DNA of 64,000 bases from Bacillota bacterium (GTDB taxonomy: Bacteria; Bacillota; TC1), in contig JAQUGR010000001.1 in assembly GCA_028683955.1 (NCBI GenBank), positions 62,001 through 126,000 of the forward strand, given 5' to 3'. Within the stretch, counting starts at the first letter, position 1. Each line of letters begins with the position of its first letter. The notes under the pieces are model-generated. The model was not told the origin of the DNA, searched no databases, and saw only the letters and a program-made list of their open reading frames with translations. This document shows positions 12,958 through 18,349 of this stretch, piece by piece. Position numbers and translations under genes: made by a program.

Positions 12958-13674
12958 ATGCCAGAGTCATTTAAACCAGGTTGTCAAAGACCACCTATCA
13001 AAAAGGCCGAAAAAGTTATTGAAAAATCAGGTATAGAAATAAATGAAAAGGAAGTGAAAAGCATGATTCAAGTAGGAAAACCTGCACCAGACTTTACTGC
13101 ACCTGCATATATTAAGGGTGAGTTTGCAAATGTTAGTTTATCAGAATATAAGGGGAAATGGGTATTACTTTGCTTTTATCCAGGTGATTTCACTTTTGTT
13201 TGAGCTACAGAAGTTGCAGCAGTTGCTGCTAAAAATAAAGAAATGGAAGATTTAGGAGTACAGGTATTATCTGTGAGTGTAGATAGTATATTCGTGCATA
13301 AAATGTGGAATGATCATGAATTAGGTAAAATGGTTGAAGGTGGAGTTCCATTCCCAATGTTATCAGATCAAAGTGGAGAAATAGGTAAAATGTATGGAAT
13401 TTATGATGAAGATGCTGGAGTGGAAACCAGAGGTAGATTTATTATTGATCCAGATGGTGTAGTTCAAGGATTTGAAGTATTAACTCCACCAGTTGGTAGA
13501 AATGTTAGTGAAAGTATAAGGCAAGTTAAAGCATTCCAATTAGTAAGAGACGCTAAAGGAACAGAAGCAACTCCTTCAGGTTGGAAACCAGGTAAAACAA
13601 CCTTGAAACCAGGACCAGATTTAGTAGGTAATGTTTGGAAAGTTTGGAAAGTAGAAGAAGCTTTTGATGATTAA
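12958..13674 (+). CDS. prxU: selenocysteine-containing peroxiredoxin (UGA read as Sec at codon 82)
   Basis: A single gene of 238 residues interrupted only by an in-frame TGA at 13201-13203. The TGA falls exactly where the peroxidatic cysteine belongs: [23 protein letters not shown], against the FTFVCPTE motif of 2-Cys peroxiredoxins. Both flanks keep the same frame and family similarity ([13 protein letters not shown] before; [13 protein letters not shown] and [10 protein letters not shown] after), and a stem-loop suited to a bacterial SECIS follows. The Prx domain begins at residue 38; the first 37 residues form a short extension with GCQRPP. The usual resolving-Cys motif CPAGW is ATPSGW here, so no C-terminal resolving Cys is present. 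It reduces peroxides in the cytoplasm. GAAAGGGGGAAAAGTT precedes the ATG. Confidence 0.93.
13201..13229 (+). other. UGA(Sec) codon and candidate bacterial SECIS stem-loop
   Basis: Twelve bases after the TGA, GCAGC (13216-13220) and GCTGC (13225-13229) form a perfect 5-bp stem around the tetraloop AGTT. A G in the first two loop positions and this distance from the UGA are the rules for bacterial SECIS recognised by SelB. The element lies within the coding sequence, as in all bacterial cases. Confidence 0.75.
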
Positions 13675-14890: not shown

Positions 14891-15415
14891 CTAATTATTA
14901 GCCCAAACAATCAATTCTTTCAGTTCTTTTGTCAATTCATTAAGTTGTTTAGTTGTCATTTTAGATACCTTGGCATCATGCCCTTTGACCGTAGCGATAT
15001 GTGTTTTAACTTCACCTTTAGAATTAATAAACACTATAAACGGAACTAATAATCGATTCTTTGTAGTATTGGAAATAAAATATTTCTCTAATTCAATATT
15101 ATTCATACTAGTATAAGAATCAGCACGAGTATCAACAACATAAGCTTTCATATTTTCATTCTTTAATACTTTATTAAATACTGGCACTAACTCCTGGCAC
15201 CACAGGCATGATGGAAAACCAAAGTAATAAATGCCAGCTTTACCTTCAGACATGATTTCAATCGTTTCACTAGCTGATCTATGTACAAATTGCTTTGTAT
15301 TCACCTCATAACTTCCCGTTCCTCCTCCTGAATTATCAGCAACAAAAAAACCCAAAGTAAATACTCCAATCATTATTACCAAAGTAATAATGATATATAA
15401 GATTTTTGATTTCAT
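14891..15415 (-). CDS. membrane-anchored thioredoxin-like protein with CLWC motif
   Basis: A 174-residue protein. Residues 5-25 form a signal anchor, so the rest lies outside the membrane. The thioredoxin-like domain has the redox motif C70-LW-C73 in GFPSCLWCQELVP and a cis-proline segment VPFIVFI near residue 127. The layout resembles the PedC/BrcD and SkfH-type accessory proteins that form disulfides in exported peptides. It is the last gene of the operon and starts with an ATGA overlap with the protease gene. I infer that it closes the bond between the two Cys of the 72-residue peptide; a general thiol oxidase remains possible. Confidence 0.8.
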   Translation of the reverse strand: MKSKILYIIITLVIMIGVFTLGFFVADNSGGGTGSYEVNTKQFVHRSASETIEIMSEGKAGIYYFGFPSCLWCQELVPVFNKVLKNENMKAYVVDTRADSYTSMNNIELEKYFISNTTKNRLLVPFIVFINSKGEVKTHIATVKGHDAKVSKMTTKQLNELTKELKELIVWANN

Positions 15416-15768
15416 TTTTTCTTTCCTTTCATTATAGAATAGATGGCCGATTCACCATCAGAGGTAAATGGCAATAAATTAAAAAAATTCAACAAGAACA
15501 TTATCTTCAATACTATGAAATATCCACTATCAGGCATACAAAGACCAATAAGAATTGATCCTATAGGCGCAGACAATGATATCAACAGTATCTTCCACCA
15601 TTCTTCCTCGGCTGAATACTCCAAGGCTGGGGTTAACCATTTAAAGGTCAAACTAAACTTAACCTTCAAAAAAAATGCCATAAGGACATGAATCAACTCA
15701 TGAATTACAACAGCAATAAATATAGATGCCATATACCATATAAGAATTATTACTAACTCTAAATTCAT
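15412..15768 (-). CDS. mini M50-type site-2 protease-like membrane protein
   Basis: Only 118 residues with about three to four hydrophobic segments. It carries HELIH at residues 23-27 in the first helix, the zinc-binding HExxH of M50 intramembrane proteases, and FFNLLPFTSDGES near residue 100, equivalent to the NxxPxxxxDG that supplies the third zinc ligand (Asp). This is a stripped catalytic core without PDZ or CBS domains. It overlaps its neighbours by four bases on both sides. I infer that it cuts the small peptide precursor within its membrane segment. The family assignment rests on the two motifs and their spacing. Confidence 0.75.
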   Translation of the reverse strand: MNLELVIILIWYMASIFIAVVIHELIHVLMAFFLKVKFSLTFKWLTPALEYSAEEEWWKILLISLSAPIGSILIGLCMPDSGYFIVLKIMFLLNFFNLLPFTSDGESAIYSIMKGKKK

Positions 15769-16037
15769 TTCTTATTAAGAATTTTACCTATTAAGCTTGA
15801 TGTAATAATAAAAAATATAGTAAAGATAATATAAGTTATAAGCACCTGCCATGTTAAACTAAATGTTGTAAATAACTCTTCAGGTGTCATTTCAGTGACT
15901 ATTCTTAATCCCAAAATAGTTACATGAGTTCCACTTTCAGTAATTCTAAATAATTCAATTACATAATCAATTAAAAAAACCACAACATATATCACAGTAG
16001 CAAGACTAATCTTTTTAAAAAGTTTATCCATAATCAA
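15765..16037 (-). CDS. small two-helix membrane protein of the peptide operon
   Basis: A 90-residue protein with hydrophobic stretches near residues 12-32 and 58-84 separated by a polar loop (RITESGTHVTILGLRIVTEM). The start is TTG at 16037, six bases after GGAG; an ATG two codons later is the alternative. It overlaps the permease stop and the protease start by four bases, so it belongs to the same translationally coupled operon. I recognise no family. Immunity protein or permease subunit are the natural guesses. Confidence 0.65.
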   Translation of the reverse strand: MIMDKLFKKISLATVIYVVVFLIDYVIELFRITESGTHVTILGLRIVTEMTPEELFTTFSLTWQVLITYIIFTIFFIITSSLIGKILNKK

Positions 16038-17392
16038 TATATTCTCCTTTCTTTTTTTGCTAATAAATATAAGGCACCCATCAACACCAATATGATTGGC
16101 ATAGCTATAAAATCATATCTAAAAGCTAATGTGAATGTTATTAATAATATCATTAAGAACAATGCTGATGCTGTTTCGTTTAAATTACCTTTAGACTTTG
16201 GAAACAAAAAACCAGCTATCAAAGAACTAAGATATATTACACCTCCATAAATAAGACCTTGATAATTGCCTTGAGTTACTAAAGCCAACAATATAGAAGG
16301 ACTTAAAATAAAGAATCCCATTAATATTAAAGAAGCGAATTCACGCTCTACACTAATCCTAAGCAGATTAAAAAATGATCTAACTTCAAATGTTGAATCT
16401 GCATAATAAAGTCCTACTATTCCAAATATTGGTAAAAACAAACCCAACACTGATGGTACCTCTTCTAATCCATAATTAAATAATGCAAATACAACTATTA
16501 AGGTTTCAAATCCAGTAATATACCAGAAATTTTTAGTTCTAACCATAGCATTAAAGGTAGTATCTAGATTTAATCTCAAATTAAGTAACTTAAATCCCAT
16601 ATACTTAGTTTGAATATTAACTTTAGATTCAACACCTAAGCAACCATCAATGTATAAAATTAAAGTTAAGATTAGTAATGGAATAAAAGTAGCCATAAGA
16701 AGTAAAACCGTTATGGAAACATCCAATTTACTAATTACTACATCCACTTTGAATCTAAACATCATCATATAACTAATAGCAAATATGATACTAACAAAAT
16801 CAAAAAAAACCATTAACTTATTACTAATCTTTAGTATTCCTTGATATAGCAAATCAATAAGATAAAATGTGACAAAAAATACAGCATGTACACTAACAAT
16901 GAAAAGCAAGACCTGAGGAACTGTTAAGATCATTAATTTAGCAATTGGAATAACAATAATAAATATAATCTCAAATACTGCCAGACCTACTAGTCCTTTA
17001 AATAACTTTTGTGCGAAAATAACTTCTTTTTTCAAAAATGGTATTGTAGTCCCAACAAAAATAGATGCTCTACTATAATTAATGGTTGAACGTATAAAAG
17101 TATATATTATTATTCCAAAGACAATAGACATATTCAAAAAACTACTAATAGTAATTCTTGTTGCAGTTATCATGGAACTCTTACTTGCAACTTCAACACT
17201 ATTCATCATGGTCCCTAATGCAGACATATTTAGTAAGAAATAGGCAATATATGCCATCCCCACAAACATCAAAAAGATAGTTAAGGTAATTCTATTTTTG
17301 AAAAAGGGTTGATCAAACACTCCATGAAGTGAGTCATTCAAAAAAAACTTTAATAAGGTTTTAATATTTGTCAATTTCTTCGATTTTCTCAT
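16034..17392 (-). CDS. ABC exporter permease of the peptide operon
   Basis: A 452-residue protein with around eleven to twelve hydrophobic segments and very few soluble loops. It has no close match to common ABC-2 permeases that I can name. The assignment follows from its place directly after, and overlapping by 32 bases, an ABC ATPase gene, and from its topology. The start ATG 17392 is preceded by AAGGTGG. It should form the membrane part of an exporter or immunity pump for the peptide encoded at the head of the operon. Confidence 0.7.
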   Translation of the reverse strand: MRKSKKLTNIKTLLKFFLNDSLHGVFDQPFFKNRITLTIFLMFVGMAYIAYFLLNMSALGTMMNSVEVASKSSMITATRITISSFLNMSIVFGIIIYTFIRSTINYSRASIFVGTTIPFLKKEVIFAQKLFKGLVGLAVFEIIFIIVIPIAKLMILTVPQVLLFIVSVHAVFFVTFYLIDLLYQGILKISNKLMVFFDFVSIIFAISYMMMFRFKVDVVISKLDVSITVLLLMATFIPLLILTLILYIDGCLGVESKVNIQTKYMGFKLLNLRLNLDTTFNAMVRTKNFWYITGFETLIVVFALFNYGLEEVPSVLGLFLPIFGIVGLYYADSTFEVRSFFNLLRISVEREFASLILMGFFILSPSILLALVTQGNYQGLIYGGVIYLSSLIAGFLFPKSKGNLNETASALFLMILLITFTLAFRYDFIAMPIILVLMGALYLLAKKERRIY

Positions 17393-18065
17393 TTAATCCA
17401 CCTTCATTTTTAACTAGATTTGATAATTCCAGAGGATTTCCAACATATTTTTCTAATCTACCAAAGCGCATAAGCCAAATATCTTTATTAAATTTTAATA
17501 ATGTATTTAAATCATGTGATATAACAACTATTTTTGATATATTCGCAGCTTTAATAAATAATTCTTGTGCCAAAATAACAGTTTCAAAGTCTAGTCCACT
17601 AAATATTTCATCGGCTATTATGGTATTGATGTTCAAGCTAACAGCTATAGCAATTTGGAGCTTTTTCTTCATTCCAAAAGAGTATGTTTCAATTGTTTTA
17701 TTAATATCCAATTTTAAATCAAATAAGCTTACAACTAATTCAAAGTATTCCAAATCAGAAGTATCATATCTGCTAAGAATAAATCTCGCATATTCTTTTC
17801 CAGTCATGTATCCTGGTAAATAAAAGTCAGATGGTAAATAAAATAGTTTCTCCTTATAACCCTCTGTTCCAAATAATGTATTATCAATTGAAATATTTCC
17901 TGAATCAGAACCAAATAGTCCAGAAATTATATTAAATAGTGTGGTTTTTCCTGATCCATTAGTACCAACGATTACTGATATATCTTTAGATAAGAAATCA
18001 ACCGATATGTCATCTAAAACAATGTGTTTTCCAAATCTTTTGCTTACATTTTTTATACTAATCAA
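17361..18065 (-). CDS. ABC transporter ATP-binding protein of the peptide operon
   Basis: A 234-residue ATPase. Walker A is VGTNGSGKTT near residue 34, the Q-loop region reads FYLPSDFYLPGY, and Walker B is NTIIADEIFSGLDF near 150 with H-loop VVISHDLN. The signature is degenerate (TYSFGMKKKL instead of LSGGQ), as in many bacteriocin-immunity and ABC-2 ATPases. The start is TTG 18065, five bases after GGAGAGG. An attenuator-like hairpin separates it from the peptide gene upstream. Confidence 0.9.
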   Translation of the reverse strand: MISIKNVSKRFGKHIVLDDISVDFLSKDISVIVGTNGSGKTTLFNIISGLFGSDSGNISIDNTLFGTEGYKEKLFYLPSDFYLPGYMTGKEYARFILSRYDTSDLEYFELVVSLFDLKLDINKTIETYSFGMKKKLQIAIAVSLNINTIIADEIFSGLDFETVILAQELFIKAANISKIVVISHDLNTLLKFNKDIWLMRFGRLEKYVGNPLELSNLVKNEGGLNEKIEEIDKY

Positions 18066-18080
18066 TGTATCCTCTCCTAA

Positions 18081-18119
18081 AAGAGAACTAGCACGATGTA
18101 AACCATACTAGTTCTTTTA
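18081..18119 (-). terminator. attenuator-type hairpin between the peptide and ABC genes
   Basis: On the minus strand AGAACTAG pairs with CTAGTTCT over a 16-base loop and is followed by CTTTT. The outer AAA/TTT can extend the stem. The T-run is short, so read-through into the ABC genes is expected. Many bacteriocin operons use such a partial terminator to make far more precursor peptide than transporter. Confidence 0.6.
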
Positions 18120-18130
18120 TAAGCAAATTA

Positions 18131-18349
18131 TTAATTTGCTTTACAACCAATACCCATTTGCCATATCTTAGGCCAATTTAACTTAACATTCCCAGAAAAA
18201 GAATAACCTCTGCTTGTGCAATAAAATGCATAAGCAAAAAATCCAACTAGAACAAGTAAAGCAAAAACTAACCAGAACCATTTGTTCCTAACAATATTTG
18301 AATATTTTACAGATAAATACTCTCTATAAATCGGTATAAGTGCATCCAT
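18131..18349 (-). CDS. 72-residue two-cysteine membrane peptide, candidate exported-peptide precursor
   Basis: The start is ATG 18349, because AAAGGGGGG lies nine bases upstream; an earlier ATG precedes that ribosome site and is rejected. Layout: 23 polar residues rich in Tyr and Lys/Arg (MDALIPIYREYLSV), one membrane helix (about W24-Y43), then 29 residues containing Cys44 and Cys69 with glycines, aromatics and the end GIGCKAN. No double-glycine leader is present. It heads an operon encoding an ABC transporter, an M50-like protease and a CxxC thioredoxin. I infer a membrane-held precursor cut by the protease, closed by one disulfide and exported. A small transporter subunit is the main alternative. 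Confidence 0.6.
   Translation of the reverse strand: MDALIPIYREYLSVKYSNIVRNKWFWLVFALLVLVGFFAYAFYCTSRGYSFSGNVKLNWPKIWQMGIGCKAN

What the first reader, a model, noticed from the sequence alone, without database searches (positions are those of the whole stretch)
14891..18349. Candidate undescribed disulfide-peptide system: two-Cys membrane peptide, ABC pump, mini M50 protease and CxxC thioredoxin
Seen: six minus-strand genes in a tight operon. The first encodes 72 residues with one membrane helix and two Cys (44, 69) in the outer 29 residues. Then come an ABC ATPase and permease, a 90-residue membrane protein, a 118-residue HELIH + NLLPFTSDG protease core, and an anchored CLWC thioredoxin, the last four genes overlapping by 4 bases or more. 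Known: SDP/SKF and pediocin-type systems combine a precursor, membrane protease or transporter, and thiol oxidase. Inference: the protease releases the Cys-containing end, the CLWC protein closes its disulfide, and the ABC pair exports it or gives immunity. There is no GG leader, no radical SAM and no LanM, so it matches no named class I know.
Basis: partly seen in the sequence, partly recalled or inferred. Interest (0 to 1): 0.8.

Follow-up and report, generated by a model that had tools for sequence, protein, structure and literature searches.

The report
TMcin-type bacteriocin operon with built-in thioredoxin
This six-gene operon very probably makes a TMcin, a recently described kind of antibacterial peptide that keeps a membrane-spanning helix and one disulfide bond; the unusual point is that the operon carries its own disulfide-forming enzyme, of a different type from the one known in staphylococci.

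Summary
Observation confirmed: six overlapping minus-strand genes encode a 72-aa one-helix, two-Cys peptide, an ABC ATPase and permease, a 90-aa two-helix protein, a 118-aa mini site-2 protease and an anchored CLWC thioredoxin. The same six genes, in the same order, occur in Lactococcus piscium and 13 other fetched loci. Both Cys are invariant, and in 337 genomes the precursor never occurs without the protease (17/17).

It is not an undescribed class. It matches the TMcins (Nat Commun 2025; bioRxiv 2026) in gene content, Cys spacing, protease fold and profile similarity to a staphylococcal TMcin cluster, with Paraclostridium precursors as a bridge.

The modest but useful novelty: the 2026 preprint says the disulfide-enzyme gene tmcD is missing outside staphylococci. 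Here a PedC/BrcD-type thioredoxin is built into the operon. One relative carries a different PedC-type protein instead, and Paraclostridium plasmids carry a DsbA-like one. Verdict: new variant of a known kind. Antibacterial activity and the thioredoxin's role are inferred, not shown.

The parts
18131..18349 (-). tmcA-like precursor, 72 aa: leader about residues 1-19, helix about 24-43, disulfide loop Cys44-Cys69
18078..18119 (-). RNA hairpin between tmcA and tmcB
   Evidence: z -3.8 against dinucleotide shuffles; 10 of 14 loci have z of -2.3 or lower in this gap
17361..18065 (-). tmcB-like ABC ATPase, 234 aa, TTG start
   Evidence: ABC_tran 4.5e-17; best plasmid relative is in the S. epidermidis TMcin cluster
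16034..17392 (-). tmcC-like ABC permease, 452 aa, no Pfam or NCBIfam match
   Evidence: Profile match to staphylococcal TmcC: probability 94.8, E 5e-8 over 373 columns
15765..16037 (-). tmcE-like two-helix protein, up to 90 aa (second possible start at 16031)
   Evidence: Position between C and P and conservation; sequence match to known TmcE weak
15412..15768 (-). tmcP-like mini site-2 protease, 118 aa: HELIH (23-27), NLLPFTSDG (97-105)
14891..15415 (-). Membrane-anchored CLWC thioredoxin of PedC/BrcD type (Cys70, Cys73; Val-Pro 124-125), proposed equivalent of tmcD
   Evidence: TIGR01295 in 18 of 19 relatives, below its cut-off in this protein

Best explanation
It is a TMcin bacteriocin gene cluster in the order tmcA-B-C-E-P plus a thioredoxin. 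The 72-aa precursor sits in the membrane with its C-terminal loop outside. The anchored CLWC thioredoxin joins Cys44 and Cys69. TmcP, a mini site-2 protease helped by TmcE, removes a leader of about 19 residues. TmcBC pulls the roughly 53-residue helix-plus-loop peptide (about 6.2 kDa) out of the membrane. The peptide then inserts in other Gram-positive cells and forms pores. Shown here: the genes, their co-occurrence, their conservation, the protease fold and the profile links to TMcin genes. Shown by others in a staphylococcal homologue: each maturation step, killing and pore formation. Inferred: that the same steps run here, and that the thioredoxin does the job of TmcD.
For: Same gene set B-C-E-P next to a one-helix two-Cys precursor as in the staphylococcal cluster. 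A cut before Val20 puts the Cys at 25 and 50, as in TMcin-G1905. Permease profile match probability 94.8 and protease 87.7. Precursor linked through Paraclostridium: probability 92 to this family, and 49 bits to staphylococcal TmcA, above 2000 decoys. Protease model pLDDT 87.9 with SpoIVFB, mjS2P and RseP as the three best PDB matches. Precursor and protease found in the same 17 of 337 genomes. Cys invariant.
Against: The direct precursor-to-staphylococcal-TmcA match is weak (probability 56.6, and it does not beat shuffled decoys). TmcE similarity is weak (17-57%). The second helix-flanking Trp described for TMcins is missing in this precursor, though present in L040-L043. No DsbB or VKOR was found in the genome to re-oxidise the thioredoxin. 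No activity data.
Confidence: 0.87

Rival explanations
1. The same machinery makes the peptide, but it is a signal (pheromone) or acts on sibling cells, and is not a pore-forming bacteriocin.
For: Rgg-family regulators, often peptide-controlled, stand upstream in some relatives (L002, L027). The loop is well conserved within groups of relatives.
Against: The characterised homologue kills Gram-positive bacteria by pores (PMC12328743). No regulator of that kind adjoins the operon in the window.
Confidence: 0.07
2. One reading: the protease cuts within or after the helix and releases only the 25-30 residue Cys-containing loop.
For: Site-2 proteases cut in or near helices. The loop is closed by the two invariant Cys.
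Against: In TMcin-G1905 N-terminal sequencing and mass put the helix in the product. Helix and loop are equally conserved, the leader less.
Confidence: 0.04
3. The 72-aa protein is a small subunit of the ABC transporter or another membrane complex, and no peptide is released.
For: Weak Pfam matches of the precursor to ABC2_membrane_2 and DUF5684, both under their cut-offs.
Against: The precursor and protease track each other. Thiol oxidoreductases of different families accompany these clusters. The homologue is secreted.
Confidence: 0.02

Closest known systems
TMcin (staphylococcal TMcin-G1905; tmcBCEPA plus tmcD), PMC12328743 and PMC13252029
   Same: One-helix precursor with two Cys at the same spacing, ABC ATPase and permease, two-helix small protein, DUF3267 site-2 protease, thiol-disulfide enzyme; genes B-C-E-P in the same order
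   Different: tmcA comes first instead of last; leader about 19 instead of 45 residues; protease 118 instead of about 172 aa; the disulfide enzyme is a PedC/BrcD-like thioredoxin in the operon instead of a separate DsbA-like TmcD
Paraclostridium bifermentans plasmid clusters (L089, L093)
   Same: 72-aa two-Cys precursor first, then ATPase, permease, protease, small protein and an oxidoreductase
   Different: Protease fused to a PqqD domain; oxidoreductase is DsbA-like (Thioredoxin_4); an extra DUF3267 gene follows
PedC/BrcD disulfide proteins of class IIa bacteriocins (TIGR01295)
   Same: Thioredoxin-like CxxC protein that serves a bacteriocin
   Different: Membrane-anchored, below the family cut-off, and serves a helix-containing peptide without a double-glycine leader
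SKF and epipeptide systems of Bacillus
   Same: Works partly alike: precursor, membrane protease and ABC pump (largely from general knowledge)
   Different: No radical SAM enzyme in this operon

Membership tests
TMcin | Precursor with a single membrane helix followed by a loop between two universally conserved Cys | tested here: met
TMcin | Precursor homologous to TmcA | tested here: met
   Met through the Paraclostridium intermediate; the direct comparison with staphylococcal TmcA is inconclusive
TMcin | Two highly conserved Trp flanking the helix | tested here: inconclusive
   Trp24/26 on the inner side; none on the outer side here, but present in L040-L043
TMcin | TmcP: DUF3267 site-2 protease with HExxH and distal Pro and Asp | tested here: met
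   DUF3267 score of the window protein itself is below the Pfam cut-off
TMcin | TmcB/TmcC transporter | tested here: met
TMcin | TmcE two-helix escort protein | tested here: inconclusive
   Same position and conserved, but sequence match weak
TMcin | DsbA-like TmcD (stated for staphylococcal clusters only, not defining for the class) | tested here: not met
   A PedC/BrcD-like thioredoxin takes this place
TMcin | Leader removed, helix kept in the product, disulfide present, pore-forming antibacterial activity | not testable with these tools
   Needs expression and mass spectrometry
PedC/BrcD (TIGR01295) | Score above the family cut-off (120 bits) | tested here: not met
   29.4 bits, E 6e-7: related, not a member
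SKF/epipeptide-type systems | Radical SAM enzyme in the operon | tested here: not met
   None of the six proteins matches one

The most novel reading that the evidence does not exclude
TMcin clusters outside staphylococci do not simply lack a disulfide enzyme, as the preprint states. A streptococcal/lactococcal-type branch, including this organism, has its own PedC/BrcD-like thioredoxin built into the operon, and thiol oxidoreductases of different families (DsbA-like in staphylococci and Paraclostridium, PedC-like here, another PedC-type protein in L050) have been recruited to the same peptide class more than once.
Probability: 0.7. Interest if true: 0.55.

Novelty: new variant of a known kind. 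Interest (0 to 1): 0.47.

Why it matters
The TMcin preprint leaves open how non-staphylococcal TMcins get the disulfide they need for killing: a distant oxidoreductase, or oxidation by the environment. This operon supplies a direct candidate that can be tested by changing two codons. It also gives an alignment of precursors and partner genes for finding TMcins by genome mining (no NCBIfam model matches them, and the authors report that antiSMASH missed theirs), and it places one in an organism outside the Lactobacillales.

Tried and rejected
Viral contigs, phages and plasmids searched with the thioredoxin, permease, protease and precursor gave no close relatives; the protease hits are at chance level. 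So phage or plasmid carriage of this branch is not supported. The S. epidermidis RP62A group (L090), Roseburia (L091) and Peribacillus (L092) share an ATPase but show no TMcin cluster in their annotation and were dropped. The permease AF2 model is unusable (pLDDT 38.6). The first ATPase/permease tree had L050's ATPase out of frame; one search replaces it. The protease-thioredoxin fusion in L036 was not used as evidence, because that locus is decaying (stops in the precursor, broken permease). The precursor's DUF5684 and ABC2_membrane_2 hits are under their cut-offs. Whether the 2025 paper's tree already contains streptococcal members could not be checked (figure and supplement not held). Four paper searches for the system by its parts found nothing before the one that found the TMcin preprint or beside it.

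Full report
OBSERVATION. The six ORFs are present at the stated coordinates on the minus strand. The first encodes 72 aa with Cys44 and Cys69 and a single hydrophobic stretch. The next five overlap: ATPase/permease by 32 bp, the following three junctions by 4 bp each. Pfam and NCBIfam recognise only the ATPase clearly. The protease gives DUF3267 (3e-4) and M50 (0.006), the thioredoxin PedC/BrcD (6e-7), all under cut-off; the precursor and permease match nothing above cut-off.

RELATIVES. A scan with the thioredoxin found Lactococcus piscium DSM 6634 with all six genes in the same order. From there, 20 of 337 genomes of that family have the thioredoxin. The regions around them show complete operons in L025-L029, L031, L037-L041 and L043, damaged ones in L030, L036, L042 and L044, one cut by a contig end (L035), and orphan thioredoxins in L032-L034. 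Two more came from the wider order: L051 (complete) and L050. Cys44 and Cys69 are invariant in 15 precursors.

In the 337 genomes the precursor profile hits 17 strongly, and all 17 have the protease. The only extra protease genome (G313) is the contig-end case, and one weak precursor hit (G081, 5e-4) looks spurious. Fisher's test gives 1e-27, but that ignores shared ancestry. In the window's own phylum only this genome among 399 searched has the permease. In an unrooted ATPase plus permease tree the window sits nearest L051 and L037-L039 on long branches. Transfer between lineages is likely, but its direction is not shown.

WHAT IT IS. A literature search found the TMcins: PMC12328743 (Nat Commun 2025) and PMC13252029 (bioRxiv 2026). 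TMcin-G1905 is a 5.8-kDa peptide with an N-terminal helix and a two-stranded loop closed by a disulfide between C25 and C50; it forms large pores. TmcP, a DUF3267 site-2 protease, removes the leader. TmcE is a two-helix escort, TmcBC exports the peptide, and the DsbA-like TmcD makes the disulfide, which killing requires.

As a yardstick I used the S. epidermidis plasmid pHOB2 (L088), which has the same layout and a 297-bp tmcA as published; it is not the published plasmid itself. Profile comparisons: permease probability 94.8, E 5e-8; protease 87.7, E 3e-6; precursor directly only 56.6. Paraclostridium bifermentans plasmids (L089, L093) encode a 72-aa precursor that links the two: probability 92 to the window family and 49 bits to staphylococcal TmcA, above 2000 block-shuffled decoys. 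TmcE similarity is weak (17% alone, 57% with Paraclostridium added). The AF2 model of the window protease (pLDDT 87.9) has SpoIVFB, mjS2P and RseP as its three best PDB matches.

MECHANISM. Inferred from homology: disulfide closure outside by the anchored thioredoxin; leader removal by TmcP with TmcE; extraction by TmcBC; pore formation in targets. A cut before Val20 would put the Cys at 25 and 50, exactly as in TMcin-G1905. Helix (48%) and loop (46%) are more conserved than the leader (33%) among the relatives, as expected if both belong to the product. A hairpin lies between tmcA and tmcB in most loci (10 of 14 with z of -2.3 or lower) with unrelated sequences; I read this as favouring expression of the precursor, which is inference.

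WHAT IS NEW. [quoted passage not shown] The family described here has an in-operon thioredoxin, CxWC in nearly all members and with an invariant Val-Pro, related to PedC/BrcD (18 of 19 members) and not detectably to the Paraclostridium DsbA-like protein. L050 lacks it, but has another PedC/BrcD-like protein (2.9e-13) divergently beside tmcA. Paraclostridium carries a DsbA-like Thioredoxin_4 protein (1.5e-18). So such an enzyme seems to be recruited repeatedly. What re-oxidises it is unknown: no DsbB or VKOR was found in this genome.

LIMITS. There is no experiment. The published tree and gene-arrangement figure could not be read, so streptococcal members may already be listed there; the text I could search does not mention a thioredoxin, or these genera as producers. 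The self-immunity mechanism is unknown here and in the published system.

Noticed in passing
window 12958-13674 (+): Peroxiredoxin gene with an in-frame TGA at codon 82, where the peroxidatic Cys is expected: a selenocysteine peroxiredoxin (PrxU model, 409.6 bits; SelB present in the genome).. A gene finder without selenocysteine would split it in two.
   Followed up: yes
L093:7722-8615 and L089:7221-8114 (Paraclostridium bifermentans plasmids): TmcP-like protease fused to an N-terminal PqqD (peptide-binding) domain in a TMcin-like cluster, with a further DUF3267 gene downstream.
   Followed up: partly
L050:5437-5889: A different PedC/BrcD-like thioredoxin lies divergently beside the precursor gene of a cluster that lacks the usual thioredoxin.
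   Followed up: partly
L036:6479-7381: Protease and thioredoxin fused in one 300-aa ORF, in a locus that otherwise looks decayed.
   Followed up: partly
L032, L033, L034: Orphan copies of the thioredoxin directly after a GTPase gene that looks like der, without the rest of the operon; one of these genomes (G161) also has a full cluster.
   Followed up: no
L002:3667-4527, L027:6619-7488, L038:4135-5357: Rgg-family regulators upstream of the operon in L002 and L027; in L038 a different HTH protein with a small ORF of secreted-peptide type between it and the precursor gene. Possible peptide-controlled expression.
   Followed up: partly
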